Program-made: the position numbers and the translations under genes
Shown here: positions 21,311 through 58,623 of the stretch, one piece after another
Numbering within the stretch: the stretch's first letter is position 1
How the letters are laid out: the number at the start of each line of letters is the position of its first letter
The notes under the pieces: generated by a model
What the model was told of the DNA's origin: nothing
Databases searched by the model: none
Seen by the model: only the letters and a program-made list of their open reading frames with translations
Source of the DNA: Vibrio sp. FE10
Lineage (GTDB): Bacteria > Pseudomonadota > Gammaproteobacteria > Enterobacterales > Vibrionaceae
Reading direction: 5' to 3'
DNA length: 64,000 nucleotides
Assembly: GCF_030297155.1 (NCBI RefSeq)
Contig: NZ_AP028067.1
Span: 1,984,001-2,048,000 of the forward strand

Positions 21311-21320
21311 TAGTGCTTAT

Positions 21321-37752: not shown

Positions 37753-40700
37753 TTATTGGTCTGGTAAGTTCACAAAGAGTTGATTAACCAAGTTACTCAA
37801 ATCACTACTTATCACACTGCCATCGCCTTGAGCGTTCACAGAGTCAAACTGATTCCCCGTATTATCAAGTACAATCGTTTGAGTTTGACCACTGTTACCT
37901 GAATCTTCAGAAATAGTGATCACTAAGTCCTTATCCCCTCCACCGTTATCCACTTTTTCAATAGCGATGTGTTCTAAAAGATCTGACATATTATTCTCAG
38001 TCGGCAGCAGTTGAGAGATATCCAAATGGTCTTCACCCAAAGCAAAGTCGGTAATGGTATCAACATCGCCTTGGAATGGTTGGTCAACCCATTGGAACAA
38101 GTCATCACCTTCTCCACCAACTAAGATATCGTCTCCTAGCCCACCGATAAGCGTATCTTCACCACCTTGGCCATAGAGAATATCGTCTCCTTCGCCGCCA
38201 GATAAAATGTCATCCTTATCGTTGGCTCGAGATTGGTCAAAGTCTTGTACATTGTCAGAAATATAATCGTGAATATCTCGCGCTGACACCGAAGACAATT
38301 GCTCACCAGTTTCCTGAGCTACATATTTCTGTATCGCTGCGACACCTTGACCTGAAATACCGTCAAATTGCACTAAGTCTCCGAACATGATGTCATCACC
38401 AGCTAAAGCATCAATTTGATCTTCACCTTGCAATAAACTCACTTCTTTACCAAGAATAACCTCTGACAATTTCGTTACGTCTATTGACGTTTCAACTAGG
38501 CCATCAGAGTCGTAATCTTCGAGAACATCTTCATCTAATGAGTTACCGAGCCCAATAGCGTCAACAGATGACATCAATGCGAGCAATTGATACATATGCT
38601 GACCTTGTTTATTAACGCCACCCTTATCATAGTAATCGTAAGAATTGCCATTAATGCTTAAATCACCAATTCTATCTCCTGTTAATGGTGAATATAGCTT
38701 GGCCTTATCGTCAATTAATACATTACCTTTATAATTAACAACGCCACTTGTATATCCGGCAGGCAATAAATCAGCCAGTGTTATAACTTGGTTCGTACTC
38801 AGATCATAATCGATCAATATTTCATCGAACTCACTTTTCATTAACCTACTGTCAGTAAAGGAAGTCGGCTCACCGTCAGAAATGAAATATGAAATGTTGT
38901 TCCCACCGCTTTGGTCAGCGAACCATTCAACAGCAGATTGGAATCCAGCTTCATAATTGGTACCACCTCCGCCAGCATCAGTGATCGCATCAAGTGCTGC
39001 GACGAACTGCTCTCTTGGGTTTTGACTGCTCAAGTCGACAGATACTGACGTATTTGAATTGTCTGAAAAATCCGTTATTAGAATATTAACTTGGCCGGAA
39101 TGTTGCCCCTGAGAGCTAGCTAAAATCGCATCAAAAACAACCAACAGTTCATCTTTTGCGGTTTCAACATCTCTTCCCATGCTGCCCGACGTATCGAGAA
39201 TAAACGCGATGTTGTAATCCTCACCAGCAACAATTTGAATCCCTTGAACGTCACCAACAATCAAATCGTTGTTCTCTGTCCCTTTGATATTATCATCACC
39301 GTGAGAGCCAGATTCCAAATCATAGCTTCTGAAACTTATATCTGCTGACGTGTTAGTTATTGCTTCATCACTATTAACCGATTCAGAGGATGAGGCAGAT
39401 ACAGCAAGCTCAAAGTCTAGGTCTCCTTCATAAGAGTAAGGAATGCGAAGCTCTGCACTAACATCACCAGAAACAGGTATAACAATAGAATATGATCCAT
39501 CAATGTTTGGAGATATAAGCTGTCCCCCGATGTACAACTCAACGCCTTGAGGTATACCTACAAGAGTAAATTCATTACCTAACGATTCACTTCCATCGTT
39601 ATCAACAAGTTCCGCTGAAATATCTAGTGGTATTACACTATCTTGAAGAACCGTATATTCTCCAGTCTCATTATCAATCTCGATTATCGAATCCGAGAAA
39701 ATAATACGTTCAATACCATATAAATGGTCACCATCTTCGGTGGAAGGCGAATTATCACTAGATGTGTCTCTTTCAAGAGAATCTTTAACTAACCAATAAG
39801 GTACTTGGCTATGTTCTAGGCCTCTAAAATCAAGCTCGTATTCAGACAATTTGCCTTGATAGATAACAGTATCAGTTTCAACTTCGCTATCCTGAGACCC
39901 ATTACCACCATAAAACGAATCGTTGCCACTAGTCCCAACAAACGTATCGCTACCCTGTTGACTCAAGTTAACGGCTTGCTGATCGCCAACAAACTGCTGA
40001 GCCGCCGCATTGTCAGGTGCAATCATCAAGTCATCACCTTGATTGCCATCATTAAAACCTGGAGACTGGTCAACATGGTCGAAATTAATACCACCAATAG
40101 ATGTCTCACCGTTACTTACAAGGTTTCTAATATCGCTAGGTGATGTACCGAAATCAGGCACAGCTTGTGATTGTTGCAACTCCCCGACCGCAATAGTTAT
40201 ACGAGGAGCATCAGCAACCGCACTGACCGTAATATCGAGAGTATCGCTTACACCAGTGTTTGTAGTGTAAGTCACTGTCGGAACGTTACCTGACCAATGC
40301 TCAGATGGTACAAACGAGTAACTACCATCTTGCTCAACCGTCAACTCACCACCGGTTAGCGTGATAGTGTCACCAACGTTATAGGAAGTTCCTCCTACTT
40401 CAATTGACTGCAGTGATAATGTGTTATCTGTATCAGTATCGTTTGCTAACACGTTACCAGAGATACTTGTATCTTCATCTACAGTACGAGTATCTGGCTG
40501 CGTATTTGTAGCATTGTATTCATGAACAACCACATCAATACTGGTCGTAGTCGTAGCAGTACTTGCTGAGTCCTTTTCACTAGCGATCGCTTCTACATCA
40601 ATAGTAAAATCGTCGTGACTTCCCGAAGGCGGTAAGACCGTTAGACTTGTCATATCCCAACTACTGATATCAAATGTCTCATTGGTAGTAGTGAATGTGT

Positions 40701-43700
40701 GAGAATTAACTCCATCACTTAGCTCAGAACCAATAGGGAAACCACTAACATTGACAGCCAAACTTTCAGAACCATCAGTATCATTTAAAGATGCTTGCAG
40801 CTCTGTCAGTGGAATACGTGTGTCTTGTGGACCTTCATTCGTTGTATAGACTTGATAGAACTCAACGCCATTTTCGTTTATTAGTTGTGATGTACGTATG
40901 TCAATATTATCGAGCTGAGATACATCACTGACTACGCCAAAGTTTGTGTTGTCTAAGTTGACAGGGCTCGCGCCATCTACAGAAACATTGACATCGAAAT
41001 TACCAGGGCCACTTTGGTTATGATGGTAAATTTCTATCGGATAAAAACCAGAAACAGTTGGGGTGAATGCTCCACCTTGAATACTCCCGCGACTGTCGCC
41101 CCATCGAGCATCATCTGTAAGTTCTCCGCCGATTTTTATCGCTAAACTGTCGTCTGCTTTACCAACGAAATCATAAGATGTACCGGCTTCTAGATAAATT
41201 AGACCAGTGATTAGTGTAGCTTGACCAGCTCCTTGACTAGGGTCTCGGACGTCATTCGTATTGCTTGAAGAGGCACTATTCGCATCCAAATCATCGATGA
41301 CATTAATCAAGGTATCAGGGTCAACACCATTACCAACACCATATTGAGAACCAACAGAGACACCATTCCACATACTTACGTTGAATTGTTGGCCCGGAAG
41401 TTCAATTCCATCAATGCTGGTTAACAAGTTAGGGGCATCAGCAATTGGAGTAACATTTATCGCGACAGTCGACTCTTCGCCTATATTTACACCATCCGTT
41501 GGTTTGAAACCAATCTGTGCATAATCTTGTTGTTGGTCGCCGATACCTGGGGTTGAGTGACTATCGTACCCAGATTCATCTTCATCCGGAGTGAATCGAA
41601 CTCTATCTGCATCAAATTCGCCCTTGTCGATAACTTGACCAACCGAAATGTCATGCCACTGACCATCATCACCGAAATACTCAAACTGACCGTTATCTGG
41701 CAAATCGGTAATCTCGATACCTAGAGCTGAATCAGGTGAATCAACATCGCTTATTCCAAAGGAATCCCACTCGATGAAGGTAGATGTGTCTTCGTTTGTG
41801 TCAACCACACCATCAGAGGCAATAGGTGACTCATTCAGGTTCTGCTCGTTCAGCGTCACGTCGATTTCGGTCGACTTCACATCGCCAAGACCGCCCGCTT
41901 CTGTCGCCGTCACTTTCAGATTGTGCACGTTCGCCAGCGCTTCGAAGTCGTTCGACGCGGCCAACACACCCGCATCCGTTAGGGTAATCGCACCCGTTGA
42001 AGCGTTGATTTCGAACCAGCCGTTGTCGTTACCCGACGTGATGCTGTACGTCACCGACTCACCGTCCGCGTCTGTCGCACTCACGGTGCCGATCACGGTC
42101 GTGCCGTCTAGGTTCTCGTTGTAGCTGAAGCTGTATTCACCGTCGTCGTTGGTCCCAGTGAACTCCGGCGCGTTGTCGTCCAGGTTCTGCTCGTTCAGCG
42201 TCACGTCGATTTCGGTCGACTTCACATCGCCAAGACCGCCCGCTTCTGTCGCCGTCACTTTCAGATTGTGCACGTTCGCCAGCGCTTCGAAGTCGTTCGA
42301 CGCGGCCAACACACCCGCATCCGTTAGGGTAATCGCACCCGTTGAAGCGTTGATTTCGAACCAGCCGTTGTCGTTACCCGACGTGATGCTGTACGTCACC
42401 GACTCACCGTCCGCGTCTGTCGCACTCACGGTGCCGATCACGGTCGTGCCGTCTAGGTTCTCGTTGTAGCTGAAGCTGTATTCACCGTCGTCGTTGGTCC
42501 CAGTGAACTCCGGCGCGTTGTCGTCCAGGTTCTGCTCGTTCAGCGTCACGTCGATTTCGGTCGACTTCACATCGCCAAGACCGCCCGCTTCTGTCGCCGT
42601 CACTTTCAGATTGTGCACGTTCGCCAGCGCTTCGAAGTCGTTCGACGCGGCCAACACACCCGCATCCGTTAGGGTAATCGCACCCGTTGAAGCGTTGATT
42701 TCGAACCAGCCGTTGTCGTTACCCGACGTGATGCTGTACGTCACCGACTCACCGTCCGCGTCTGTCGCACTCACGGTGCCGATCACGGTCGTGCCGTCTA
42801 GGTTCTCGTTGTAGCTGAAGCTGTATTCACCGTCGTCGTTGGTCCCAGTGAACTCCGGCGCGTTGTCGTCCAGGTTCTGCTCGTTCAGCGTCACGTCGAT
42901 TTCGGTCGACTTCACATCGCCAAGACCGCCCGCTTCTGTCGCCGTCACTTTCAGATTGTGCACGTTCGCCAGCGCTTCGAAGTCGTTCGACGCGGCCAAC
43001 ACACCCGCATCCGTTAGGGTAATCGCACCCGTTGAAGCGTTGATTTCGAACCAGCCGTTGTCGTTACCCGACGTGATGCTGTACGTCACCGACTCACCGT
43101 CCGCGTCTGTCGCACTCACGGTGCCGATCACGGTCGTGCCGTCTAGGTTCTCGTTGTAGCTGAAGCTGTATTCACCGTCGTCGTTGGTCCCAGTGAACTC
43201 CGGCGCGTTGTCGTCCAGGTTCTGCTCGTTCAGCGTCACGTCGATTTCGGTCGACTTCACATCGCCAAGACCGCCCGCTTCTGTCGCCGTCACTTTCAGA
43301 TTGTGCACGTTCGCCAGCGCTTCGAAGTCGTTCGACGCGGCCAACACACCCGCATCCGTTAGGGTAATCGCACCCGTTGAAGCGTTGATTTCGAACCAGC
43401 CGTTGTCGTTACCCGACGTGATGCTGTACGTCACCGACTCACCGTCCGCGTCTGTCGCACTCACGGTGCCGATCACGGTCGTGCCGTCTAGGTTCTCGTT
43501 GTAGCTGAAGCTGTATTCACCGTCGTCGTTGGTCCCAGTGAACTCCGGCGCGTTGTCGTCCAGGTTCTGCTCGTTCAGCGTCACGTCGATTTCGGTCGAC
43601 TTCACATCGCCAAGACCGCCCGCTTCTGTCGCCGTCACTTTCAGATTGTGCACGTTCGCCAGCGCTTCGAAGTCGTTCGACGCGGCCAACACACCCGCAT

Positions 43701-46700
43701 CCGTTAGGGTAATCGCACCCGTTGAAGCGTTGATTTCGAACCAGCCGTTGTCGTTACCCGACGTGATGCTGTACGTCACCGACTCACCGTCCGCGTCTGT
43801 CGCACTCACGGTGCCGATCACGGTCGTGCCGTCTAGGTTCTCGTTGTAGCTGAAGCTGTATTCACCGTCGTCGTTGGTCCCAGTGAACTCCGGCGCGTTG
43901 TCGTCCAGGTTCTGCTCGTTCAGCGTCACGTCGATTTCGGTCGACTTCACATCGCCAAGACCGCCCGCTTCTGTCGCCGTCACTTTCAGATTGTGCACGT
44001 TCGCCAGCGCTTCGAAGTCGTTCGACGCGGCCAACACACCCGCATCCGTTAGGGTAATCGCACCCGTTGAAGCGTTGATTTCGAACCAGCCGTTGTCGTT
44101 ACCCGACGTGATGCTGTACGTCACCGACTCACCGTCCGCGTCTGTCGCACTCACGGTGCCGATCACGGTCGTGCCGTCTAGGTTCTCGTTGTAGCTGAAG
44201 CTGTATTCACCGTCGTCGTTGGTCCCAGTGAACTCCGGCGCGTTGTCGTCCAGGTTCTGCTCGTTCAGCGTCACGTCGATTTCGGTCGACTTCACATCGC
44301 CAAGACCGCCCGCTTCTGTCGCCGTCACTTTCAGATTGTGCACGTTCGCCAGCGCTTCGAAGTCGTTCGACGCGGCCAACACACCCGCATCCGTTAGGGT
44401 AATCGCACCCGTTGAAGCGTTGATTTCGAACCAGCCGTTGTCGTTACCCGACGTGATGCTGTACGTCACCGACTCACCGTCCGCGTCTGTCGCACTCACG
44501 GTGCCGATCACGGTCGTGCCGTCTAGGTTCTCGTTGTAGCTGAAGCTGTATTCACCGTCGTCGTTGGTCCCAGTGAACTCCGGCGCGTTGTCGTCCAGGT
44601 TCTGCTCGTTCAGCGTCACGTCGATTTCGGTCGACTTCACATCGCCAAGACCGCCCGCTTCTGTCGCCGTCACTTTCAGATTGTGCACGTTCGCCAGCGC
44701 TTCGAAGTCGTTCGACGCGGCCAACACACCCGCATCCGTTAGGGTAATCGCACCCGTTGAAGCGTTGATTTCGAACCAGCCGTTGTCGTTACCCGACGTG
44801 ATGCTGTACGTCACCGACTCACCGTCCGCGTCTGTCGCACTCACGGTGCCGATCACGGTCGTGCCGTCTAGGTTCTCGTTGTAGCTGAAGCTGTATTCAC
44901 CGTCGTCGTTGGTCCCAGTGAACTCCGGCGCGTTGTCGTCCAGGTTCTGCTCGTTCAGCGTCACGTCGATTTCGGTCGACTTCACATCGCCAAGACCGCC
45001 CGCTTCTGTCGCCGTCACTTTCAGATTGTGCACGTTCGCCAGCGCTTCGAAGTCGTTCGACGCGGCCAACACACCCGCATCCGTTAGGGTAATCGCACCC
45101 GTTGAAGCGTTGATTTCGAACCAGCCGTTGTCGTTACCCGACGTGATGCTGTACGTCACCGACTCACCGTCCGCGTCTGTCGCACTCACGGTGCCGATCA
45201 CGGTCGTGCCGTCTAGGTTCTCGTTGTAGCTGAAGCTGTATTCACCGTCGTCGTTGGTCCCAGTGAACTCCGGCGCGTTGTCGTCCAGGTTCTGCTCGTT
45301 CAGCGTCACGTCGATTTCGGTCGACTTCACATCGCCAAGACCGCCCGCTTCTGTCGCCGTCACTTTCAGATTGTGCACGTTCGCCAGCGCTTCGAAGTCG
45401 TTCGACGCGGCCAACACACCCGCATCCGTTAGGGTAATCGCACCCGTTGAAGCGTTGATTTCGAACCAGCCGTTGTCGTTACCCGACGTGATGCTGTACG
45501 TCACCGACTCACCGTCCGCGTCTGTCGCACTCACGGTGCCGATCACGGTCGTGCCGTCTAGGTTCTCGTTGTAGCTGAAGCTGTATTCACCGTCGTCGTT
45601 GGTCCCAGTGAACTCCGGCGCGTTGTCGTCCAGGTTCTGCTCGTTCAGCGTCACGTCGATTTCGGTCGACTTCACATCGCCAAGACCGCCCGCTTCTGTC
45701 GCCGTCACTTTCAGATTGTGCACGTTCGCCAGCGCTTCGAAGTCGTTCGACGCGGCCAACACACCCGCATCCGTTAGGGTAATCGCACCCGTTGAAGCGT
45801 TGATTTCGAACCAGCCGTTGTCGTTACCCGACGTGATGCTGTACGTCACCGACTCACCGTCCGCGTCTGTCGCACTCACGGTGCCGATCACGGTCGTGCC
45901 GTCTAGGTTCTCGTTGTAGCTGAAGCTGTATTCACCGTCGTCGTTGGTCCCAGTGAACTCCGGCGCGTTGTCGTCCAGGTTCTGCTCGTTCAGCGTCACG
46001 TCGATTTCGGTCGACTTCACATCGCCAAGACCGCCCGCTTCTGTCGCCGTCACTTTCAGATTGTGCACGTTCGCCAGCGCTTCGAAGTCGTTCGACGCGG
46101 CCAACACACCCGCATCCGTTAGGGTAATCGCACCCGTTGAAGCGTTGATTTCGAACCAGCCGTTGTCGTTACCCGACGTGATGCTGTACGTCACCGACTC
46201 ACCGTCCGCGTCTGTCGCACTCACGGTGCCGATCACGGTCGTGCCGTCTAGGTTCTCGTTGTAGCTGAAGCTGTATTCACCGTCGTCGTTGGTCCCAGTG
46301 AACTCCGGCGCGTTGTCGTCCAGGTTCTGCTCGTTCAGCGTCACGTCGATTTCGGTCGACTTCACATCGCCAAGACCGCCCGCTTCTGTCGCCGTCACTT
46401 TCAGATTGTGCACGTTCGCCAGCGCTTCGAAGTCGTTCGACGCGGCCAACACACCCGCATCCGTTAGGGTAATCGCACCCGTTGAAGCGTTGATTTCGAA
46501 CCAGCCGTTGTCGTTACCCGACGTGATGCTGTACGTCACCGACTCACCGTCCGCGTCTGTCGCACTCACGGTGCCGATCACGGTCGTGCCGTCTAGGTTC
46601 TCGTTGTAGCTGAAGCTGTATTCACCGTCGTCGTTGGTCCCAGTGAACTCCGGCGCGTTGTCGTCCAGGTTCTGCTCGTTCAGCGTCACGTCGATTTCGG

Positions 46701-49700
46701 TCGACTTCACATCGCCAAGACCGCCCGCTTCTGTCGCCGTCACTTTCAGATTGTGCACGTTCGCCAGCGCTTCGAAGTCGTTCGACGCGGCCAACACACC
46801 CGCATCCGTTAGGGTAATCGCACCCGTTGAAGCGTTGATTTCGAACCAGCCGTTGTCGTTACCCGACGTGATGCTGTACGTCACCGACTCACCGTCCGCG
46901 TCTGTCGCACTCACGGTGCCGATCACGGTCGTGCCGTCTAGGTTCTCGTTGTAGCTGAAGCTGTATTCACCGTCGTCGTTGGTCCCAGTGAACTCCGGCG
47001 CGTTGTCGTCCAGGTTCTGCTCGTTCAGCGTCACGTCGATTTCGGTCGACTTCACATCGCCAAGACCGCCCGCTTCTGTCGCCGTCACTTTCAGATTGTG
47101 CACGTTCGCCAGCGCTTCGAAGTCGTTCGACGCGGCCAACACACCCGCATCCGTTAGGGTAATCGCACCCGTTGAAGCGTTGATTTCGAACCAGCCGTTG
47201 TCGTTACCCGACGTGATGCTGTACGTCACCGACTCACCGTCCGCGTCTGTCGCACTCACGGTGCCGATCACGGTCGTGCCGTCTAGGTTCTCGTTGTAGC
47301 TGAAGCTGTATTCACCGTCGTCGTTGGTCCCAGTGAACTCCGGCGCGTTGTCGTCCAGGTTCTGCTCGTTCAGCGTCACGTCGATTTCGGTCGACTTCAC
47401 ATCGCCAAGACCGCCCGCTTCTGTCGCCGTCACTTTCAGATTGTGCACGTTCGCCAGCGCTTCGAAGTCGTTCGACGCGGCCAACACACCCGCATCCGTT
47501 AGGGTAATCGCACCCGTTGAAGCGTTGATTTCGAACCAGCCGTTGTCGTTACCCGACGTGATGCTGTACGTCACCGACTCACCGTCCGCGTCTGTCGCAC
47601 TCACGGTGCCGATCACGGTCGTGCCGTCTAGGTTCTCGTTGTAGCTGAAGCTGTATTCACCGTCGTCGTTGGTCCCAGTGAACTCCGGCGCGTTGTCGTC
47701 CAGGTTCTGCTCGTTCAGCGTCACGTCGATTTCGGTCGACTTCACATCGCCAAGACCGCCCGCTTCTGTCGCCGTCACTTTCAGATTGTGCACGTTCGCC
47801 AGCGCTTCGAAGTCGTTCGACGCGGCCAACACACCCGCATCCGTTAGGGTAATCGCACCCGTTGAAGCGTTGATTTCGAACCAGCCGTTGTCGTTACCCG
47901 ACGTGATGCTGTACGTCACCGACTCACCGTCCGCGTCTGTCGCACTCACGGTGCCGATCACGGTCGTGCCGTCTAGGTTCTCGTTGTAGCTGAAGCTGTA
48001 TTCACCGTCGTCGTTGGTCCCAGTGAACTCCGGCGCGTTGTCGTCCAGGTTCTGCTCGTTCAGCGTCACGTCGATTTCGGTCGACTTCACATCGCCAAGA
48101 CCGCCCGCTTCTGTCGCCGTCACTTTCAGATTGTGCACGTTCGCCAGCGCTTCGAAGTCGTTCGACGCGGCCAACACACCCGCATCCGTTAGGGTAATCG
48201 CACCCGTTGAAGCGTTGATTTCGAACCAGCCGTTGTCGTTACCCGACGTGATGCTGTACGTCACCGACTCACCGTCCGCGTCTGTCGCACTCACGGTGCC
48301 GATCACGGTCGTGCCGTCTAGGTTCTCGTTGTAGCTGAAGCTGTATTCACCGTCGTCGTTGGTCCCAGTGAACTCCGGCGCGTTGTCGTCCAGGTTCTGC
48401 TCGTTCAGCGTCACGTCGATTTCGGTCGACTTCACATCGCCAAGACCGCCCGCTTCTGTCGCCGTCACTTTCAGATTGTGCACGTTCGCCAGCGCTTCGA
48501 AGTCGTTCGACGCGGCCAACACACCCGCATCCGTTAGGGTAATCGCACCCGTTGAAGCGTTGATTTCGAACCAGCCGTTGTCGTTACCCGACGTGATGCT
48601 GTACGTCACCGACTCACCGTCCGCGTCTGTCGCACTCACGGTGCCGATCACGGTCGTGCCGTCTAGGTTCTCGTTGTAGCTGAAGCTGTATTCACCGTCG
48701 TCGTTGGTCCCAGTGAACTCCGGCGCGTTGTCGTCCAGGTTCTGCTCGTTCAGCGTCACGTCGATTTCGGTCGACTTCACATCGCCAAGACCGCCCGCTT
48801 CTGTCGCCGTCACTTTCAGATTGTGCACGTTCGCCAGCGCTTCGAAGTCGTTCGACGCGGCCAACACACCCGCATCCGTTAGGGTAATCGCACCCGTTGA
48901 AGCGTTGATTTCGAACCAGCCGTTGTCGTTACCCGACGTGATGCTGTACGTCACCGACTCACCGTCCGCGTCTGTCGCACTCACGGTGCCGATCACGGTC
49001 GTGCCGTCTAGGTTCTCGTTGTAGCTGAAGCTGTATTCACCGTCGTCGTTGGTCCCAGTGAACTCCGGCGCGTTGTCGTCCAGGTTCTGCTCGTTCAGCG
49101 TCACGTCGATTTCGGTCGACTTCACATCGCCAAGACCGCCCGCTTCTGTCGCCGTCACTTTCAGATTGTGCACGTTCGCCAGCGCTTCGAAGTCGTTCGA
49201 CGCGGCCAACACACCCGCATCCGTTAGGGTAATCGCACCCGTTGAAGCGTTGATTTCGAACCAGCCGTTGTCGTTACCCGACGTGATGCTGTACGTCACC
49301 GACTCACCGTCCGCGTCTGTCGCACTCACGGTGCCGATCACGGTCGTGCCGTCTAGGTTCTCGTTGTAGCTGAAGCTGTATTCACCGTCGTCGTTGGTCC
49401 CAGTGAACTCCGGCGCGTTGTCGTCCAGGTTCTGCTCGTTCAGCGTCACGTCGATTTCGGTCGACTTCACATCGCCAAGACCGCCCGCTTCTGTCGCCGT
49501 CACTTTCAGATTGTGCACGTTCGCCAGCGCTTCGAAGTCGTTCGACGCGGCCAACACACCCGCATCCGTTAGGGTAATCGCACCCGTTGAAGCGTTGATT
49601 TCGAACCAGCCGTTGTCGTTACCCGACGTGATGCTGTACGTCACCGACTCACCGTCCGCGTCTGTCGCACTCACGGTGCCGATCACGGTCGTGCCGTCTA

Positions 49701-52700
49701 GGTTCTCGTTGTAGCTGAAGCTGTATTCACCGTCGTCGTTGGTCCCAGTGAACTCCGGCGCGTTGTCGTCCAGGTTCTGCTCGTTCAGCGTCACGTCGAT
49801 TTCGGTCGACTTCACATCGCCAAGACCGCCCGCTTCTGTCGCCGTCACTTTCAGATTGTGCACGTTCGCCAGCGCTTCGAAGTCGTTCGACGCGGCCAAC
49901 ACACCCGCATCCGTTAGGGTAATCGCACCCGTTGAAGCGTTGATTTCGAACCAGCCGTTGTCGTTACCCGACGTGATGCTGTACGTCACCGACTCACCGT
50001 CCGCGTCTGTCGCACTCACGGTGCCGATCACGGTCGTGCCGTCTAGGTTCTCGTTGTAGCTGAAGCTGTATTCACCGTCGTCGTTGGTCCCAGTGAACTC
50101 CGGCGCGTTGTCGTCCAGGTTCTGCTCGTTCAGCGTCACGTCGATTTCGGTCGACTTCACATCGCCAAGACCGCCCGCTTCTGTCGCCGTCACTTTCAGA
50201 TTGTGCACGTTCGCCAGCGCTTCGAAGTCGTTCGACGCGGCCAACACACCCGCATCCGTTAGGGTAATCGCACCCGTTGAAGCGTTGATTTCGAACCAGC
50301 CGTTGTCGTTACCCGACGTGATGCTGTACGTCACCGACTCACCGTCCGCGTCTGTCGCACTCACGGTGCCGATCACGGTCGTGCCGTCTAGGTTCTCGTT
50401 GTAGCTGAAGCTGTATTCACCGTCGTCGTTGGTCCCAGTGAACTCCGGCGCGTTGTCGTCCAGGTTCTGCTCGTTCAGCGTCACGTCGATTTCGGTCGAC
50501 TTCACATCGCCAAGACCGCCCGCTTCTGTCGCCGTCACTTTCAGATTGTGCACGTTCGCCAGCGCTTCGAAGTCGTTCGACGCGGCCAACACACCCGCAT
50601 CCGTTAGGGTAATCGCACCCGTTGAAGCGTTGATTTCGAACCAGCCGTTGTCGTTACCCGACGTGATGCTGTACGTCACCGACTCACCGTCCGCGTCTGT
50701 CGCACTCACGGTGCCGATCACGGTCGTGCCGTCTAGGTTCTCGTTGTAGCTGAAGCTGTATTCACCGTCGTCGTTGGTCCCAGTGAACTCCGGCGCGTTG
50801 TCGTCCAGGTTCTGCTCGTTCAGCGTCACGTCGATTTCGGTCGACTTCACATCGCCAAGACCGCCCGCTTCTGTCGCCGTCACTTTCAGATTGTGCACGT
50901 TCGCCAGCGCTTCGAAGTCGTTCGACGCGGCCAACACACCCGCATCCGTTAGGGTAATCGCACCCGTTGAAGCGTTGATTTCGAACCAGCCGTTGTCGTT
51001 ACCCGACGTGATGCTGTACGTCACCGACTCACCGTCCGCGTCTGTCGCACTCACGGTGCCGATCACGGTCGTGCCGTCTAGGTTCTCGTTGTAGCTGAAG
51101 CTGTATTCACCGTCGTCGTTGGTCCCAGTGAACTCCGGCGCGTTGTCGTCCAGGTTCTGCTCGTTCAGCGTCACGTCGATTTCGGTCGACTTCACATCGC
51201 CAAGACCGCCCGCTTCTGTCGCCGTCACTTTCAGATTGTGCACGTTCGCCAGCGCTTCGAAGTCGTTCGACGCGGCCAACACACCCGCATCCGTTAGGGT
51301 AATCGCACCCGTTGAAGCGTTGATTTCGAACCAGCCGTTGTCGTTACCCGACGTGATGCTGTACGTCACCGACTCACCGTCCGCGTCTGTCGCACTCACG
51401 GTGCCGATCACGGTCGTGCCGTCTAGGTTCTCGTTGTAGCTGAAGCTGTATTCACCGTCGTCGTTGGTCCCAGTGAACTCCGGCGCGTTGTCGTCCAGGT
51501 TCTGCTCGTTCAGCGTCACGTCGATTTCGGTCGACTTCACATCGCCAAGACCGCCCGCTTCTGTCGCCGTCACTTTCAGATTGTGCACGTTCGCCAGCGC
51601 TTCGAAGTCGTTCGACGCGGCCAACACACCCGCATCCGTTAGGGTAATCGCACCCGTTGAAGCGTTGATTTCGAACCAGCCGTTGTCGTTACCCGACGTG
51701 ATGCTGTACGTCACCGACTCACCGTCCGCGTCTGTCGCACTCACGGTGCCGATCACGGTCGTGCCGTCTAGGTTCTCGTTGTAGCTGAAGCTGTATTCAC
51801 CGTCGTCGTTGGTCCCAGTGAACTCCGGCGCGTTGTCGTCCAGGTTCTGCTCGTTCAGCGTCACGTCGATTTCGGTCGACTTCACATCGCCAAGACCGCC
51901 CGCTTCTGTCGCCGTCACTTTCAGATTGTGCACGTTCGCCAGCGCTTCGAAGTCGTTCGACGCGGCCAACACACCCGCATCCGTTAGGGTAATCGCACCC
52001 GTTGAAGCGTTGATTTCGAACCAGCCGTTGTCGTTACCCGACGTGATGCTGTACGTCACCGACTCACCGTCCGCGTCTGTCGCACTCACGGTGCCGATCA
52101 CGGTCGTGCCGTCTAGGTTCTCGTTGTAGCTGAAGCTGTATTCACCGTCGTCGTTGGTCCCAGTGAACTCCGGCGCGTTGTCGTCCAGGTTCTGCTCGTT
52201 CAGCGTCACGTCGATTTCGGTCGACTTCACATCGCCAAGACCGCCCGCTTCTGTCGCCGTCACTTTCAGATTGTGCACGTTCGCCAGCGCTTCGAAGTCG
52301 TTCGACGCGGCCAACACACCCGCATCCGTTAGGGTAATCGCACCCGTTGAAGCGTTGATTTCGAACCAGCCGTTGTCGTTACCCGACGTGATGCTGTACG
52401 TCACCGACTCACCGTCCGCGTCTGTCGCACTCACGGTGCCGATCACGGTCGTGCCGTCTAGGTTCTCGTTGTAGCTGAAGCTGTATTCACCGTCGTCGTT
52501 GGTCCCAGTGAACTCCGGCGCGTTGTCGTCCAGGTTCTGCTCGTTCAGCGTCACGTCGATTTCGGTCGACTTCACATCGCCAAGACCGCCCGCTTCTGTC
52601 GCCGTCACTTTCAGATTGTGCACGTTCGCCAGCGCTTCGAAGTCGTTCGACGCGGCCAACACACCCGCATCCGTTAGGGTAATCGCACCCGTTGAAGCGT

Positions 52701-55700
52701 TGATTTCGAACCAGCCGTTGTCGTTACCCGACGTGATGCTGTACGTCACCGACTCACCGTCCGCGTCTGTCGCACTCACGGTGCCGATCACGGTCGTGCC
52801 GTCTAGGTTCTCGTTGTAGCTGAAGCTGTATTCACCGTCGTCGTTGGTCCCAGTGAACTCCGGCGCGTTGTCGTCCAGGTTCTGCTCGTTCAGCGTCACG
52901 TCGATTTCGGTCGACTTCACATCGCCAAGACCGCCCGCTTCTGTCGCCGTCACTTTCAGATTGTGCACGTTCGCCAGCGCTTCGAAGTCGTTCGACGCGG
53001 CCAACACACCCGCATCCGTTAGGGTAATCGCACCCGTTGAAGCGTTGATTTCGAACCAGCCGTTGTCGTTACCCGACGTGATGCTGTACGTCACCGACTC
53101 ACCGTCCGCGTCTGTCGCACTCACGGTGCCGATCACGGTCGTGCCGTCTAGGTTCTCGTTGTAGCTGAAGCTGTATTCACCGTCGTCGTTGGTCCCAGTG
53201 AACTCCGGCGCGTTGTCGTCCAGGTTCTGCTCGTTCAGCGTCACGTCGATTTCGGTCGACTTCACATCGCCAAGACCGCCCGCTTCTGTCGCCGTCACTT
53301 TCAGATTGTGCACGTTCGCCAGCGCTTCGAAGTCGTTCGACGCGGCCAACACACCCGCATCCGTTAGGGTAATCGCACCCGTTGAAGCGTTGATTTCGAA
53401 CCAGCCGTTGTCGTTACCCGACGTGATGCTGTACGTCACCGACTCACCGTCCGCGTCTGTCGCACTCACGGTGCCGATCACGGTCGTGCCGTCTAGGTTC
53501 TCGTTGTAGCTGAAGCTGTATTCACCGTCGTCGTTGGTCCCAGTGAACTCCGGCGCGTTGTCGTCCAGGTTCTGCTCGTTCAGCGTCACGTCGATTTCGG
53601 TCGACTTCACATCGCCAAGACCGCCCGCTTCTGTCGCCGTCACTTTCAGATTGTGCACGTTCGCCAGCGCTTCGAAGTCGTTCGACGCGGCCAACACACC
53701 CGCATCCGTTAGGGTAATCGCACCCGTTGAAGCGTTGATTTCGAACCAGCCGTTGTCGTTACCCGACGTGATGCTGTACGTCACCGACTCACCGTCCGCG
53801 TCTGTCGCACTCACGGTGCCGATCACGGTCGTGCCGTCTAGGTTCTCGTTGTAGCTGAAGCTGTATTCACCGTCGTCGTTGGTCCCAGTGAACTCCGGCG
53901 CGTTGTCGTCCAGGTTCTGCTCGTTCAGCGTCACGTCGATTTCGGTCGACTTCACATCGCCAAGACCGCCCGCTTCTGTCGCCGTCACTTTCAGATTGTG
54001 CACGTTCGCCAGCGCTTCGAAGTCGTTCGACGCGGCCAACACACCCGCATCCGTTAGGGTAATCGCACCCGTTGAAGCGTTGATTTCGAACCAGCCGTTG
54101 TCGTTACCCGACGTGATGCTGTACGTCACCGACTCACCGTCCGCGTCTGTCGCACTCACGGTGCCGATCACGGTCGTGCCGTCTAGGTTCTCGTTGTAGC
54201 TGAAGCTGTATTCACCGTCGTCGTTGGTCCCAGTGAACTCCGGCGCGTTGTCGTCCAGGTTCTGCTCGTTCAGCGTCACGTCGATTTCGGTCGACTTCAC
54301 ATCGCCAAGACCGCCCGCTTCTGTCGCCGTCACTTTCAGATTGTGCACGTTCGCCAGCGCTTCGAAGTCGTTCGACGCGGCCAACACACCCGCATCCGTT
54401 AGGGTAATCGCACCCGTTGAAGCGTTGATTTCGAACCAGCCGTTGTCGTTACCCGACGTGATGCTGTACGTCACCGACTCACCGTCCGCGTCTGTCGCAC
54501 TCACGGTGCCGATCACGGTCGTGCCGTCTAGGTTCTCGTTGTAGCTGAAGCTGTATTCACCGTCGTCGTTGGTCCCAGTGAACTCCGGCGCGTTGTCGTC
54601 CAGGTTCTGCTCGTTCAGCGTCACGTCGATTTCGGTCGACTTCACATCGCCAAGACCGCCCGCTTCTGTCGCCGTCACTTTCAGATTGTGCACGTTCGCC
54701 AGCGCTTCGAAGTCGTTCGACGCGGCCAACACACCCGCATCCGTTAGGGTAATCGCACCCGTTGAAGCGTTGATTTCGAACCAGCCGTTGTCGTTACCCG
54801 ACGTGATGCTGTACGTCACCGACTCACCGTCCGCGTCTGTCGCACTCACGGTGCCGATCACGGTCGTGCCGTCTAGGTTCTCGTTGTAGCTGAAGCTGTA
54901 TTCACCGTCGTCGTTGGTCCCAGTGAACTCCGGCGCGTTGTCGTCCAGGTTCTGCTCGTTCAGCGTCACCGTAGCTTCAGCTGTCGAGCCGTAACCGTCG
55001 GTCATCACCATCTGGTAATCACCACTGTTCGAGCCTTGATCGAAGTCGTTCACCTCCGCCGCCACGCCCGCTGCCGTGATGCTGATATTGCCGGCCGCAT
55101 CCACACTGTAGAAGCCGTCTTCACTGGTGGTGCTTAATGTGCCGTCACTGTGTTTGAACTCGTATATGGTCACGCCATCCAGATCGCTGCCTGACAAAGT
55201 GCCAACCACCGCGTCCGCCACTTGGTTTTCCGCGTACGTCACCGTTTGCGCATCAAATGAAGATTGGTCATTTACTGGCGTAACCCCAACATCAACCGTA
55301 ATGGTATCAGTACCACCTTGGCCATCATTAACCACAACAGTAAAGCTATCGCTTCCGTTGTAGTTCTCGTTTGGGGTGTATGTCCAATTACCATTTTCAT
55401 CGACGACTACAGAGCCATTCTCTGGCTCTGTACCTTTACTGAACGTTAACTGATCATTATCTGCGTCTGTTGCATTGAGGGAGCCGCTGACTGGAGTATC
55501 TTCATCTGTAGTGACAGAAACATCGTCACCGACCGGTGAATCATTAATAGGAGTAACACCGATATTCACGGTTATTGTGTCTGTGCCACCTTGCCCGTCA
55601 GAGACTTCTACAGTAAAGCTGTCATCACCGTTGTAGTTTTCATTAGGTGTATAAGTCCAGTCACCGTTTCCATCAACGACGACGGTGCCGTTCGAAGGAT

Positions 55701-56295
55701 CTGTAGCTTTAACGAAAGACAGAGTATCGCCATCTTCGTCTGAAGCCGACAAGGTTCCGTTCACTGGCGTATCTTCATCTGTGGTAAAAGAGACTGTGTC
55801 ACCGATAGGTGAATTATTGTTATCAACGAAAGTGGGATTTTTATTAGGTTGCTCAAACGAACGGAAAGCATCAAGAAGACTCAAGCTTTGAGTACGAGAC
55901 ATTCCCAGCGCTTCAAAACCCGTTGTTACGAAGTCGGTACCAGGGATAGTTTCTTCGCCATCTCGCTCGATAGTTCCGCTCGCACTTAAACTAGAGCCAT
56001 TCTGGCCTGCAGCGGTAGCGAACTCTTCACCTAACTCTGTTGGGTCTTGACCTTCTTCTAATGCAGCAAAAATATTCGCTATGTCTTGGTCAAGTTCAAC
56101 TTCCCCACCTTCTTCTGGTGAAAAGCGCTTTGCTGATACCTGAGGTTCATTGGACCCGTTCTGAGATTCAAGAACGACATCCCCTGTTTGTAGTGGTTGG
56201 CCTTCTTCTAAGACTTTAATCGTACCATCTACCGAGATAACAATGCGCTGGCCAAGTGCTAATGCACCACCCAAATTCAATGTTGTCATGTCCAT
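37753..56295 (-). CDS. Giant LapA/BapA-like type I-secreted adhesin with 38 identical cadherin-like repeats
   Basis: One open frame of 6180 residues. The ATG at 56295 is chosen (AGGGG 7 bases upstream; longer starts have none). Domains in order: LapA-type retention module (1 to about 150) with the cleavage motif TAAG at 94-97; two Ig/cadherin-like tandem units with TDEDTPV and YNGDDSFTV (about 160-345); a related unit (about 345-450); 38 copies of a 115-residue cadherin-like repeat (451-4820) with calcium-binding motifs LDDNAPEF and ATDADGE; a PA14-like domain (about 4956-5125); more Ig-like units; a von Willebrand A domain with the metal site DTSGS at 5701-5705; RTX nonapeptides [10 protein letters not shown] (about 6025-6070); and a C-terminal type I secretion domain. 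Expected role: long calcium-stiffened surface adhesin for attachment and biofilm. No exporter ATPase is nearby. A TolC-like gene is divergent. Confidence 0.93.
41836..54945 (-). repeat. Perfect tandem array, 38 units of 345 bp
   Basis: The 345-bp unit begins (plus strand) with CAGGTTCTGCTCGTTCAGCG and recurs with exact 345-base spacing from 41836 to 54945, which is 38 units and 13,110 bases, all in frame in the adhesin gene. Every unit I compared is identical in DNA, not only in protein. By hand count one unit has 203 G or C in 345 (about 59%), against the low-to-mid 40s around it. A 24-base start of a 39th unit (54946-54969) ends the array on the N-terminal side. Identity at synonymous sites shows recent amplification or gene conversion. 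If the sequence came from short reads, the copy number may be an assembly estimate. Confidence 0.97.
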
Positions 56296-56698
56296 ATAAA
56301 CCCCTAAAAAAGCATTTCTTGTCATTAACGTCAAAATAGTGACATTATATTTATAATATTAGTTAAAATATAACACTTAAAGTCATATAATTCCTAGTTA
56401 TGAATCTAGTATTTAACAACTTGAGTGACAAGCTAATGACGGTGATCACATCGCATAACAATCTTAGTGCTCACAACAGTAATATAAGTTATTGTGTTTG
56501 CGGAAAATAATAGATTTTAAAACGTAAGATTGACGTATCTAAAAATACCATAAAACGCACGATGATCGGTTAACATTTTAACAACCATTTGCGAACGCCA
56601 GCTTAGCGATCGTAATTTTTTTGGCGGTTCATCTAAATTTCGTATATAACATCACGAATTCAAGATTTAGATGCGAGCTAACTTTAGGGAGATGCACA
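56296..56698. promoter_or_regulatory. Divergent control region between the adhesin and the TolC-family gene
   Basis: About 400 AT-rich bases that must carry promoters for both directions. I see no certain operator. Close to the TolC-family start a 9-bp inverted repeat, CATCTAAAT (56630-56638) and ATTTAGATG (56665-56673), with an inner TTCG/CGAA pair, would form a leader hairpin 11 bases before the AGGGAG ribosome site. No c-di-GMP riboswitch signature was found on either strand. Confidence 0.5.
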
Positions 56699-58006
56699 TT
56701 GAATAGGCTTCAAAAGACAATATTAGGGTTAGCTATAGCACTGAGTTTACCGACTAAAGCCCAGACCTTAGAGCAAGCCGTTGCGTTTACTTTAGAAAGT
56801 AACCCTGAAATTAAAAGTGCTTATAATGAATACGTCAGTAAGCGCTATCTTAATGACGCTTCTGGTGGTGCTTACCGTCCAAGTATAGACTTAGATGGCG
56901 GTATTGGTTATGAGCATACTGACCTTGCGACCAATTCAGACACAACAGACCTTACTCGAAAAGAAGCCACTATTACCCTTACTCAGCTTATCTGGGATGG
57001 AGCTAACACCTCGAATGATATTGATCGTACCGCAGCCGATGCCGAATCTGTTCGCTATCAGTTGCTTTCCAATGCGCAAGATATCGCGTTAGAAGTAACC
57101 AAGGTTTACCTCGACGCTGTAAAGGCCTATGAAGTACTTTCTCTTTCTGAAAACAACCTAGCCACGCATAAAGAGATATACAGCGACATTCGTAAACGTG
57201 TCGAATCAGGTATTGGTTCAACAGCAGATATGTCACAGGTAGAAGCTCGTATAGCAAAAGCACACGGTAATTTACTTGCGGCGCAAAACAACCTTTTTGA
57301 CACTCATACACAATTCAAAAGGCTTGTTGGTCAATCTCCACTAGGGTTAACCTTCCCTCGAGCAGATTCGGGCGCTATCCCTTACACGGTTGATGGAGCA
57401 TTAGCAAAAGCGTTTAACCAACACCCTGTGATAAAGATTGCACAAGCCGATGTAGACTCAGCGAAATTTCAGTACAAACAATCTAAGAGCACCAACTACC
57501 CAACTGTTTCTTTTGAAGCAGCTCAAACCTGGCGCGATGATGCCGGTGGCACTCCAGGCAGCAGTGACGAATTTTCTGCGATGGTTCGTTTAAGATACAA
57601 CCTTTACAACGGTGGTTCAGACCAAGACCGCGCAGAAAGTGCCGCTTATCAACTAAACAAAGCGAAAGACCTCCGTGAAAGCACCTACCGCAATGTAGAA
57701 GAGAGCTTGCGTCTTTCATGGAGCGCGCTGGATTTAACCGTTCAACAAAAAGAGTTCTTATCTGACCACGTAGACTCGGCATCAGACACGGTAATCTCGT
57801 ATGAGAAACAATACCGCATCGGTAAACGTACTCTCCTCGATTTACTTAACACCGAGAATGAACTATTCGAGGCCCGTAAGGGCTATCTGGATGCCAAATA
57901 CGATGAACAATACGCGAAATACCGAGTAATGAATGCAACAGGAAACCTGTTAACAGGGTTACGCGTCGAAACCCCTCAAGAATGGAATGAAAAGGTAGAA
58001 TATTAA
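56699..58006 (+). CDS. TolC-family outer-membrane channel of a type I secretion system
   Basis: A 435-residue TolC/LapE/AggA-like protein that should form the outer-membrane duct for the adhesin. The start is TTG at 56699, with AGGGAG 7 bases upstream and a signal peptide directly after (MNRLQKTILGLAIALSLPTKA, then QTLEQAV); the frame is open 26 codons further but with no ribosome site or signal. The family repeats are visible: TLEQAVAFTLESNPEIKSAYNEY, VESGIGSTADMSQVEARIAKA, VRLRYNLYNGG and YRIGKRTLLDLLNTENELFEA. Its stop codon overlaps the start of the OmpA-like gene by one base (TAATG). Divergent from the adhesin gene, consistent with a dedicated role. Confidence 0.92.
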   Translation: MNRLQKTILGLAIALSLPTKAQTLEQAVAFTLESNPEIKSAYNEYVSKRYLNDASGGAYRPSIDLDGGIGYEHTDLATNSDTTDLTRKEATITLTQLIWDGANTSNDIDRTAADAESVRYQLLSNAQDIALEVTKVYLDAVKAYEVLSLSENNLATHKEIYSDIRKRVESGIGSTADMSQVEARIAKAHGNLLAAQNNLFDTHTQFKRLVGQSPLGLTFPRADSGAIPYTVDGALAKAFNQHPVIKIAQADVDSAKFQYKQSKSTNYPTVSFEAAQTWRDDAGGTPGSSDEFSAMVRLRYNLYNGGSDQDRAESAAYQLNKAKDLRESTYRNVEESLRLSWSALDLTVQQKEFLSDHVDSASDTVISYEKQYRIGKRTLLDLLNTENELFEARKGYLDAKYDEQYAKYRVMNATGNLLTGLRVETPQEWNEKVEY

Positions 58007-58623
58007 TGAAGCTGATTAAGACTGTATTTCCGCTTTGCCTCATGATTGTCTCTGCCAACGTTTTAGCTGAAACAAGCAATGAAGAATTTGAATATCGAGC
58101 TCTTCCAGACATCACGCAAATTTATGATCTCGAAGATGATGATAATGACGGCGTAATTAACGCTCGAGATTTATGTCCAGATACTCAAATTGGCGCTGAG
58201 ATAGATAACGACGGTTGTGGTTCATATTTCGAGTCATCAGAGAAAAAAGAGCTTCACATACTCTTCGCCAATAACTCTACGGAAATTAACCCTGCCTTTC
58301 TTAGTCAGATACGCCAGATGGCAGCATTTTTAAAGCGTTACGAGGGCACGACAATTGAATTGCAAGGCTATGCCAGTAAAGTGGGTAATGCCGAACATAA
58401 TTTAAAGCTATCAAAAGACCGTGCATCACACGTAAGACGTGCGCTTATCAGCAATGGCATTCAACCGTCTAGAGTGAACATCGTCGGTCACGGTGATTCT
58501 GATTTTAGTAGTGATGACACCCAAATCAATCACGCATTACATCGGAAAGTTGTCGCTTCTGTTGCAGGATTTAAAGGTAACATTAAAGAAGAGTGGCACA
58601 TCTTCACCAAAATAAAAAAGTAG
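58006..58623 (+). CDS. OmpA-like peptidoglycan-associated protein with a calcium-binding loop
   Basis: A 205-residue exported protein: signal peptide (MKLIKTVFPLCLMIVSANVLA, cut before ETS), an acidic thrombospondin type 3-like calcium loop (DDDNDGVINARDLCPDT, about residues 44-60, and DNDGCG), and a C-terminal OmpA domain (HILFANNSTEINPAFL, GYASKVGNAEHNLKLSKDRASHV, NIVGHGDSD). It should bind peptidoglycan in the periplasm. The TAATG overlap with the TolC-family gene makes co-translation certain enough to infer a joint role in secreting or anchoring the adhesin. Confidence 0.9.
   Translation: MKLIKTVFPLCLMIVSANVLAETSNEEFEYRALPDITQIYDLEDDDNDGVINARDLCPDTQIGAEIDNDGCGSYFESSEKKELHILFANNSTEINPAFLSQIRQMAAFLKRYEGTTIELQGYASKVGNAEHNLKLSKDRASHVRRALISNGIQPSRVNIVGHGDSDFSSDDTQINHALHRKVVASVAGFKGNIKEEWHIFTKIKK

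What the first reader, a model, noticed from the sequence alone, without database searches (positions are those of the whole stretch)
41836..54945. Thirty-eight apparently identical 345-bp coding repeats in one gene
Spacing is exactly 345 bases throughout, and units compared from both ends and the middle are identical in DNA. Adhesins often carry similar repeats, but identity at every synonymous site over 13 kb points to very recent expansion or continual gene conversion. Copy number should change readily by unequal recombination, changing adhesin reach in 115-residue steps without a frameshift.
Basis: partly seen in the sequence, partly recalled or inferred. Interest (0 to 1): 0.85.

Follow-up and report, generated by a model that had tools for sequence, protein, structure and literature searches.

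The report
Identical cadherin-repeat array in Vibrio adhesin
A marine Vibrio carries a giant surface-adhesion gene with 38 letter-for-letter identical copies of one building block; related species carry equally uniform blocks of quite different sequence in the same gene, so these blocks seem to be repeatedly replaced, kept uniform over long times, and altered in their silent DNA letters along the way.

Summary
The gene is an FrhA/LapA-like RTX adhesin in a Vibrio genome of 3 contigs (its same-species partner is a V. lentus record). DNA-identical arrays in RTX adhesins are known (MpAFP), so the object is a new member of a known kind.

Three things go further. (1) Orthologues in other Vibrio species carry internally identical arrays of mostly unrelated units (9 of the first 14 genes, 6-110 copies). 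A same-species genome lacks the 345-bp unit, and the single domain beside the window's array is 76% identical to the unit of a 45-copy array in another species: arrays succeed one another. (2) Composition argues against one recent expansion of ordinary sequence: fourfold-site GC 0.77 in the unit, 0.29 in the C-terminal part. (3) In Vibrio the silent-site shift is strand-asymmetric and RNase E-like RNWUU motifs are depleted (4 seen, 18 expected; new set 7, 26), which plain GC-biased conversion does not explain. The motif result did not replicate in other families. Copy number is as assembled; length switching was not observed.

The parts
41836..54969 (-). Array: 38 identical 345-bp units (115 aa each, cadherin type) plus 24 bp of a 39th
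   Evidence: Pfam Cadherin PF00028, 43.1 bits against cut-off 28.8; PDB sequence matches to cadherins (best 8vy2_A, whole-sequence E 1.3e-16, but no single stretch passes 0.01 on its own)
37753..56334 (-). Giant RTX adhesin ORF, 6193 codons from TTG (6180 aa in the protein collection, start about 56295)
55900..56295 (-). N-terminal retention-module-like region; candidate LapG site T-A-A-G at residues 107-110 (about 56005-56016)
   Evidence: NCBIfam retention_LapA 36.7 bits, below its cut-off of 50; motif position; LapG di-alanine rule from PMC6890996 passages
55267..55818 (-). Two single-copy Big_9 (tandem-95/VCBS-like) domains, fourfold GC 0.35 and 0.37
54967..55272 (-). Single edge domain: 33% identical to the array unit, 76% (102 aa) to the unit of a 45-copy array in another Vibrio (G089); fourfold GC 0.76; read as a relic of an earlier array
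37753..41835 (-). C-terminal part: weak match (E about 4e-4) to the MpAFP domain of PDB 6x7j/5j6y, Big_11, VWA, RTX nonapeptides
   Evidence: that those PDB entries are the PA14 sugar-binding domain is recalled
38854..39213 (-). VWA domain
   Evidence: PF00092 37.4 bits, PF13519 41.2 bits
38086..38223 (-). RTX calcium-binding repeats (approximate limits)
   Evidence: PF00353 44.2 bits; PDB hits
56621..58006 (+). TolC-family outer-membrane channel (LapE-like position)
   Evidence: TIGR01844 396.7 bits against cut-off 225
58006..58623 (+). OmpA-family protein
   Evidence: PF00691
59274..61307 (+). TPR-GGDEF protein, probable diguanylate cyclase
   Evidence: PF00990 116 bits

Best explanation
The gene is an FrhA/LapA-like RTX adhesin and the array is its extender: 38 cadherin domains forming a long rod between the outer-membrane-anchored N-terminus and the ligand-binding C-terminus. 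The units are identical because they evolve in concert: unequal recombination or gene conversion inside the array spreads or removes each variant faster than new ones build up. The array is one of a succession: at the same place in the gene, lineages lose one array and gain another of unrelated sequence, sometimes leaving a single unit of the old array at the edge. While homogenised, a unit's silent sites move far from the host average in a coding-strand-specific way. The likely reason is that a fault in one unit (a cleavage-prone transcript site, a poor codon) is repeated n times, so selection against it is stronger. SHOWN: identity, domain types, unrelated arrays in orthologues, edge matches, compositional shift, strand asymmetry in Vibrio. 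INFERRED: extender rod and anchoring (by homology), the recombination mechanism, selection amplified by copy number, RNase E as one agent.
For: Identity. Adhesin: domain; LapG-like (PF06035), LapD (PF16448) and type I secretion ATPase (TIGR03375, 974 bits) lie together on contig 2 within 748939-753460, the layout described for V. cholerae FrhA (PMC6890996 passages). Different identical arrays in orthologues. Concerted evolution: units of G006 (110 copies), G417 (73) and G497 (21) are each uniform yet differ from one another by 11-13% of bases. Succession: the 345-bp unit is absent from the same-species genome by DNA search (the same search finds it in its own genome), and the best match listed in 226 other Vibrio genomes is 74% aa; edge domain 76% identical to the G089 unit; 8 of 11 edges with fourfold GC of 0.6 or more, but 13 of 43 others, match a foreign array unit at 55% or more (p 0.015; 9 of those 13 match the near-ordinary G407 array). 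Composition: 58 Vibrio arrays, fourfold GC against identity rho 0.73, RNWTT density against identity rho -0.78. Asymmetry: NNY C-fraction raised in 14 of 14 and 15 of 15 arrays; NNR G-fraction raised in 7 of 14 and 6 of 15, pooled odds ratios 1.22 (p 0.24) and 1.00. RNWTT 4 vs 18.1 and 7 vs 26.4; reverse complement 53 vs 55.3 and 56 vs 57.3. Single-copy extender domains on the N side show the same asymmetry weakly (RNWTT 0.79, reverse complement 1.00).
Against: The RNWTT depletion did not replicate in 14 arrays from other families of the order (46 vs 45.2; the six with identity 0.985 or more: 16 vs 20.1), and there NNY and NNR shift alike (odds ratios 1.42 and 1.51). Among 34 Vibrio arrays with identity 0.985 or more, neither measure correlates with copy number (rho 0.21 and -0.22, p 0.22). 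Small arrays can be high-GC too (G069, three copies, 0.76). The single-copy edge domain keeps fourfold GC 0.76, so high GC does not need a current array. Other A/T-rich motifs are depleted on both strands (TA 0.77 and 0.78, AAW 0.80 and 0.83), and A/T is avoided before AA and AT as well as before TT (odds ratios 0.41, 0.27, 0.13), so general A/T-run avoidance contributes. For 3-mers, array preferences correlate with flank preferences no better than their reverse complements do (0.51 and 0.50). In the C-terminal remainder RNWTT and its reverse complement are equally depleted (0.88, 0.86). SD-like motifs are avoided as strongly in diverged arrays (0.20) and also in flanks (0.59), so that is not array-specific. 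Array codon use does not follow ribosomal-protein codon use (r 0.04).
Confidence: 0.6

Rival explanations
1. A single, very recent expansion of one domain made all 38 copies; there has been no time for differences. This is the explanation given for MpAFP in the literature.
For: Zero differences in 13 kb needs nothing else. PMC3492233 says of MpAFP that expansion is 'a relatively recent event' (passage). G407 looks like such an event: 16 copies (96%) of the N-terminal conserved domain (its 300-bp unit matches the window's Big_9 region and the N-edges of other genes), with GC4 0.40.
Against: The window's unit has fourfold GC 0.767 against 0.291 in the C-terminal part and 0.31-0.37 in the retention module and Big_9 domains; fresh copies of a host domain should look like the host, as G407's nearly do. 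All 27 Vibrio arrays examined with identity 0.985 or more and at least 10 copies have fourfold GC of 0.60 or more. Recent expansion of a unit taken from an older array, or of the kind of single high-GC domain seen at the edge, is not excluded.
Confidence: 0.22
2. GC-biased gene conversion: heteroduplex repair between units favours G and C, so homogenised arrays drift GC-rich without selection.
For: Fourfold GC above flank in 21 of 21 Vibrio arrays first examined, rising with identity (rho 0.73, 58 arrays). Minor variants seen once in imperfect arrays are mostly G/C to A/T (45 of 59 changes between the two classes at third positions), as expected if mutation is AT-biased and something keeps GC up. 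In other families fourfold GC is raised in 12 of 14 arrays and NNY and NNR rise together.
Against: A strand-symmetric process must raise G at GAA/AAA/CAA codons as it raises C at NNY codons; in Vibrio NNR does not move (62 of 171 vs 1093 of 3437; 56 of 170 vs 1244 of 3784) while NNY does (278 of 386 vs 2848 of 7338; 287 of 429 vs 3214 of 8021). GCC falls while GCG rises. RNWTT is depleted, its reverse complement is not.
Confidence: 0.2
3. The units were imported from GC-rich bacteria, so composition reflects the donor.
For: No Vibrio genome searched gave a close relative of the unit (best listed 74% aa); arrays clearly differ between close lineages.
Against: A GC-rich donor should raise CAG, GAG, AAG and CCG strongly; these move little (0.31 to 0.27, 0.32 to 0.41, 0.31 to 0.31, 0.15 to 0.23). 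First and second codon positions are unshifted in the window's unit (0.548 and 0.435 against 0.558 and 0.440 in the N-flank). Unrelated units would all need similar donors. I did not search outside Vibrio with the unit.
Confidence: 0.1
4. Assembly artefact: an assembler wrote 38 consensus copies of a more variable or shorter array.
For: Arrays this long defeat short reads; same-species G377 (180 contigs) shows one 321-nt unit with the array-like signature (fourfold GC 0.80, no RNWTT), which looks collapsed. PMC7493085 warns that repeat numbers are under-reported (passage).
Against: Genome in 3 contigs; the frame is kept over 13 kb; the same pattern in other genomes of 2 to 5 contigs; MpAFP identity was shown from clones and its copy number from pulsed-field gels (PMC3492233 passages).
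Confidence: 0.1

Closest known systems
MpAFP/MpIBP of Marinomonas primoryensis (RTX adhesin, region II)
   Same: [quoted passage not shown] weak match of the window's C-terminal part to an MpAFP domain
   Different: Unit is cadherin-type (PF00028), 345 bp, 38 copies; whether MpAFP repeats share the silent-site signature was not tested
FrhA of Vibrio cholerae
   Same: Calx-beta/cadherin repeats, LapE-like gene next door, lapD/lapG/lapB/lapC on chromosome 2, LapG-cleaved di-alanine site (PMC6890996 passages); same layout found here
   Different: The window's protein is much longer (FrhA's length is recalled); I did not align it to FrhA itself; the site reads TAAG here, PAAG in FrhA
LapA-type adhesins with LapD/LapG control
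   Same: Retention-like N-terminus, T1SS, LapG and LapD families in the genome
   Different: Retention-module score below the family cut-off (36.7 against 50 bits)

Membership tests
RTX adhesin with repetitive extender | C-terminal RTX nonapeptide repeats | tested here: met
   PF00353 44.2 bits
RTX adhesin with repetitive extender | Tandem beta-sandwich extender domains near the N-terminus | tested here: met
   38 units, PF00028 above cut-off
RTX adhesin with repetitive extender | Type I secretion system available | tested here: met
   TolC next door; TIGR03375 974 bits on contig 2
LapA-type (retained, LapG-controlled) adhesin | N-terminal retention module | tested here: inconclusive
   NF033682 36.7 bits, below cut-off 50
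LapA-type (retained, LapG-controlled) adhesin | Di-alanine LapG site after the module | tested here: met
   TAAG at residues 107-110; cleavage not tested
LapA-type (retained, LapG-controlled) adhesin | LapG and LapD in the genome | tested here: met
   PF06035 52.7 bits, PF16448 136.5 bits, adjacent on contig 2
LapA-type (retained, LapG-controlled) adhesin | Cell-surface adhesion controlled by c-di-GMP | not testable with these tools
   needs the organism
Array under concerted evolution | Units more alike within a species than between species | tested here: met
   Met for related arrays: G006/G417/G497 uniform within, 86.9-88.9% between. Not testable for the 345-bp unit itself: no array of a close relative was found
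GC-biased gene conversion | Strand-symmetric rise of G and C | tested here: not met
   Vibrio: NNY up, NNR flat. In other families both rise

The most novel reading that the evidence does not exclude
Homogenised coding arrays magnify weak selection: because one unit's defect is repeated tens of times and concerted evolution lets a better unit sweep the whole array, forces too weak to see in ordinary genes (codon choice, RNase E-like and other A/U-rich transcript sites) become visible as a strand-specific synonymous signature. At this locus arrays also replace one another and leave single fossil units at their edges, so the gene keeps a readable record of its past arrays.
Probability: 0.35. Interest if true: 0.75.

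Novelty: new member of a known kind. Interest (0 to 1): 0.55.

Why it matters
Identical adhesin arrays have been read as recent accidents. If they are long-lived, serially replaced and compositionally distinct, they become replicated natural experiments on two open questions: whether bacterial gene conversion is GC-biased (here the Vibrio data argue against a plain form) and how strongly mRNA-level selection acts on silent sites. The signature may also flag collapsed arrays in short-read assemblies, as suspected in the same-species genome G377, and warns that adhesin length is unreliable in draft genomes.

Tried and rejected
Plain GC-biased conversion was my first explanation (note); it failed the NNY/NNR test. 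Translational selection towards ribosomal-protein codons: rejected, r 0.04 (the reference set was the 25 minus-strand ORFs of 60 codons or more in one 16.5-kb ribosomal-protein region). A GC-rich donor: disfavoured by codon pattern, not searched outside Vibrio. RNase E sites as sole target: weakened by the unbiased 4-mer scan, in which SD-like GAGG/AGGA came first, by A/T avoidance before AA and AT, and by non-replication in other families. SD avoidance as an array effect: rejected, since flanks and diverged arrays show it too. E. coli Chi motif in units: none. Variant spectra within imperfect arrays: too few for a frequency test. The protein search with the N-terminus listed 120 of 765 hits, mostly tandem-95 and Ig-like repeat proteins of other bacteria; the one with the C-terminus listed 120 of 993 hits, Vibrio orthologues but none named V. 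lentus; both see only proteins of about 3,400-10,800 aa.

Rows dropped or limited: the 14-unit discovery set left out G037 (identity 0.991 but five copies and a partial ORF; it is one of 15 Vibrio arrays at identity 0.985 or more), G087 and G089 (reading frame broken in the array) and G068 (nested periods). G450 (contig end, 1255 bases) and L137-L142, L146 and L147 were fetched and not used. For G051 the fetched ORF ends inside the array, so its C-terminal baseline is not a flank. The validation set took 15 arrays from 28 genes (identity 0.985 or more, at least 10 copies, one per genome). The other-family set used a looser cut (identity 0.90, five copies): 14 arrays in 10 of 19 genes. The edge analysis used 27 genes (G051 and G069 left out). 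Some units are related across sets (G417, G497 and G006; G441 and G382), so they are not all independent. Whole-array z-scores for diverged arrays are inflated by similarity among units. The numbers in the copy-number comparison were typed in. In one search at most 20 candidates per genome were scored (20 of 31 in G377); one search repeated the question for G377, G011, G089 and G037 by DNA with all candidates scored, and found none.
Full report
WHAT IS THERE. The tract 41836-54969 is perfectly periodic: 12,789 of 12,789 positions match at a lag of 345 bases; 38 of 38 full units are identical; TRF gives 38.1 copies, 100% match, no indels. The blocks on either side are unrelated (26% and 30%). 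The array lies in frame in a 6193-codon ORF on the minus strand, and a search of its own genome finds the unit nowhere else at E 0.001. The genome is a Vibrio of 5,999,096 bases in 3 contigs. The only genome labelled 'same species' (G377) contains the contig recorded as Vibrio lentus 10N.261.46.F8 (L003; the stretch fetched from G377 lies wholly inside L003).

THE PROTEIN. From N to C: a retention-like module with a TAAG di-alanine motif at 107-110, two Big_9 domains, one single cadherin-like edge domain, 38 cadherin units (PF00028; whole-sequence PDB matches to cadherins, though no single stretch passes 0.01 on its own), then a C-terminal part with a weak match to an MpAFP domain, Big_11, VWA and RTX repeats. 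A TolC-family gene, an OmpA-family gene and a GGDEF gene follow on the other strand. LapG-, LapD- and LssB-type families sit together on contig 2. PMC6890996 (passages) describes the same split layout for V. cholerae FrhA: LapE-like gene next door, lapD, lapG, lapB and lapC on chromosome 2, LapG cutting a di-alanine motif. I therefore file it as an FrhA/LapA-like RTX adhesin. The retention-module score is under the family cut-off, FrhA itself was not aligned, and function was not tested.

IDENTICAL ARRAYS ARE COMMON AT THIS LOCUS. I fetched orthologous or related giant ORFs from other Vibrio genomes. In the first batch (13 genomes plus the window's) 9 of 14 genes have perfectly identical arrays, with periods 303, 312, 315, 324, 333, 339, 345, 414 and 675 and 6 to 110 copies. 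In a later batch 15 arrays from 28 genes had identity 0.985 or more and at least 10 copies; others were diverged. Most units are unrelated in DNA; some are related. DNA-identical repeats are established for MpAFP: about 120 copies of 312 bp, 100% identical, counted by pulsed-field gel (PMC3492233, passages; also PMC4083281).

CONCERTED EVOLUTION AND SUCCESSION. Units of G006, G417 and G497 are each uniform (110, 73 and 21 copies) yet 86.9-88.9% identical to one another. The 345-bp unit is private: among 226 other Vibrio genomes the best match listed is 74% aa (at most 20 candidates scored per genome), and a DNA search finds none in the same-species genome nor in G011, G089 or G037 (positive control). 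The same-species gene is 97.3% identical in DNA over the C-terminal part and downstream (4795 nt), 83% over the N-terminal part and upstream (1749 nt), and between them has a single unrelated 321-nt unit with fourfold GC 0.80 and no RNWTT, perhaps a collapsed array since it is a draft in 180 contigs. G011 has 94% DNA identity over 840 nt of N-flank but an unrelated 333-bp array. The window's edge domain (54967-55272) is only 33% identical to its own array unit but 76% to the unit of the 45-copy, 327-bp array of G089 and 71% to that of G037. Over 54 edges of 27 genes, 8 of 11 edges with fourfold GC of 0.6 or more match an array unit of another gene at 55% or more over at least 80 aa, against 13 of 43 of the rest (p 0.015); 9 of those 13 match the near-ordinary G407 array. 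I read such edges as relics of former arrays.

COMPOSITION. The unit has third-position GC 0.783 and fourfold GC 0.767, the C-terminal part 0.325 and 0.291, and 17 other ORFs chosen from the window have fourfold GC 0.15-0.46; first and second positions hardly differ from the N-flank. Fourfold GC is above flank in 21 of 21 Vibrio arrays, and against the last 3 kb of the ORF in 54 of 58 (for G051 that baseline lies inside the array). It rises with unit identity (rho 0.73) and falls off within about one unit outside the array (0.75 in the unit, about 0.5 in the first 300 nt on the N side, 0.36-0.41 beyond). G407 holds a telling exception: 16 copies (96%) of its conserved N-terminal domain, apparently young, fourfold GC 0.40. 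So the window's array is unlikely to be a fresh copy of ordinary host sequence. Against this, the single-copy edge domain is also high (0.76).

NOT PLAIN GC-BIASED CONVERSION. In 14 discovery units the C-fraction at NNY codons is 278 of 386 against 2848 of 7338 in flanks (odds ratio 4.06; raised in 14 of 14), but the G-fraction at NNR codons is 62 of 171 against 1093 of 3437 (1.22, p 0.24; raised in 7 of 14). In 15 new arrays: NNY 287 of 429 against 3214 of 8021 (3.02; raised in 15 of 15), NNR 56 of 170 against 1244 of 3784 (1.00; raised in 6 of 15). Preferred codons are GCG, GTG, CTG, GGC, AGC, ATC, TTC, TAC, AAC, but also CCA, GAA, AAA, CAA; the shift is uncorrelated with ribosomal-protein preference (r 0.04).

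TRANSCRIPT MOTIFS. PMC5222698 (passages) gives RN(cut)WUU as the RNase E core from 22,033 Salmonella sites. Against synonymous shuffles within each unit, RNWTT is 4 seen against 18.1 expected (z -4.1) and, in the new set, 7 against 26.4 (z -4.5); the reverse complement is 53 against 55.3 and 56 against 57.3; RNSTT is enriched. The window's unit has none. 21 of 27 arrays with at least 10 copies and identity 0.985 or more have none, against 3 of 7 smaller ones. But TA, AAW and TANNNT are depleted on both strands too. An unbiased 4-mer scan put SD-like GAGG (10 against 33.2) and AGGA (0 against 17.4) first, then CGCG and ATTC (0 against 14.9). Array and flank 4-mer preferences correlate (r 0.56, slope 1.75; with reverse-complement array 4-mers r 0.33), but 3-mers do not separate the strands (0.51 and 0.50). 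Arrays look in part like an exaggerated form of what flanks do weakly; single-copy N-side extender domains are intermediate (RNWTT 0.79, reverse complement 1.00). SD depletion inside genes is already reported as expression-dependent (PMC5100845, title and start of abstract only) and is not specific to arrays here.

LIMITS. In 14 arrays from other families of the order the RNWTT effect is absent (46 against 45.2), NNY and NNR shift alike, while fourfold GC is raised in 12 of 14. Copy number does not predict the signature within the identical class. A/T avoidance also occurs before AA and AT. Selection amplified by copy number is therefore my favoured but unproven reading, and RNase E only one candidate agent. 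Judged by titles and abstract starts, searches listed no paper on such a synonymous signature in bacterial adhesin arrays; one listed paper on giant lactic-acid-bacterial proteins (PMC12863079) was checked by passages, and those treat recombination between genes and strains, not arrays. The library holds open-licence papers only.

COPY-NUMBER CLAIM. Not tested directly. Several V. diabolicus orthologues have lengths such as 4570, 4671, 4772 and 4848, 4949, 5050 aa, whole-domain steps, but their units are diverged; of the 120 proteins listed only three (the window's own, V. toranzoniae, V. vulnificus) have exact protein arrays of 20 or more copies.

VERDICT. Observation confirmed; adhesin reading supported by homology; 'recent expansion' less likely than long-running concerted evolution with array replacement; length switching plausible and untested here. 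On re-checking, the confidence of the best explanation was lowered from 0.62 to 0.60 because the 3-mer and both-strand results against it had been left out.

Noticed in passing
own genome C1:2236501-2262500 (L115-L116): A second giant adhesin ORF (8423 aa) with a strong LapA retention module (167.6 bits) and 816-bp repeats that are far from identical (lag identity 0.62); two further retention-module-like ORFs (3241 and 1522 aa), the former with 13 copies of a 324-bp unit at 96.6%.
   Followed up: partly
window 21320-21366: Perfect 8-bp tandem repeat (TGCTTAAC, 5.9 copies) just after the rsmF-like gene; such a repeat could be length-variable.
   Followed up: no
L081 (G087) and L128 (G089): Arrays whose reading frame is broken (several short frames in G087; two overlapping ORFs of 3178 and 3322 aa in G089): sequencing error or decaying genes.
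   Followed up: no
L150-L151 (G407): One adhesin gene with two arrays: 58 identical 327-bp units (fourfold GC 0.68) and 16 copies (96%) of a 300-bp conserved N-terminal domain (fourfold GC 0.40, no RNWTT), apparently a young array.
   Followed up: partly
window 41774-54889, plus strand: 38 antisense ORFs on the plus strand, one per unit (37 of 106 codons, one of 116); taken as a mechanical by-product of codon bias.
   Followed up: no
L192, L197, L199, L207: Four giant retention-module ORFs in other genera in which TRF found no array of the kind sought (period 150 or more, at least 2.5 copies).
   Followed up: no
diverged Vibrio arrays: SD-like 4-mers are very rare in diverged adhesin arrays (77 against 376 expected, reverse complement 199 against 213).
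   Followed up: partly
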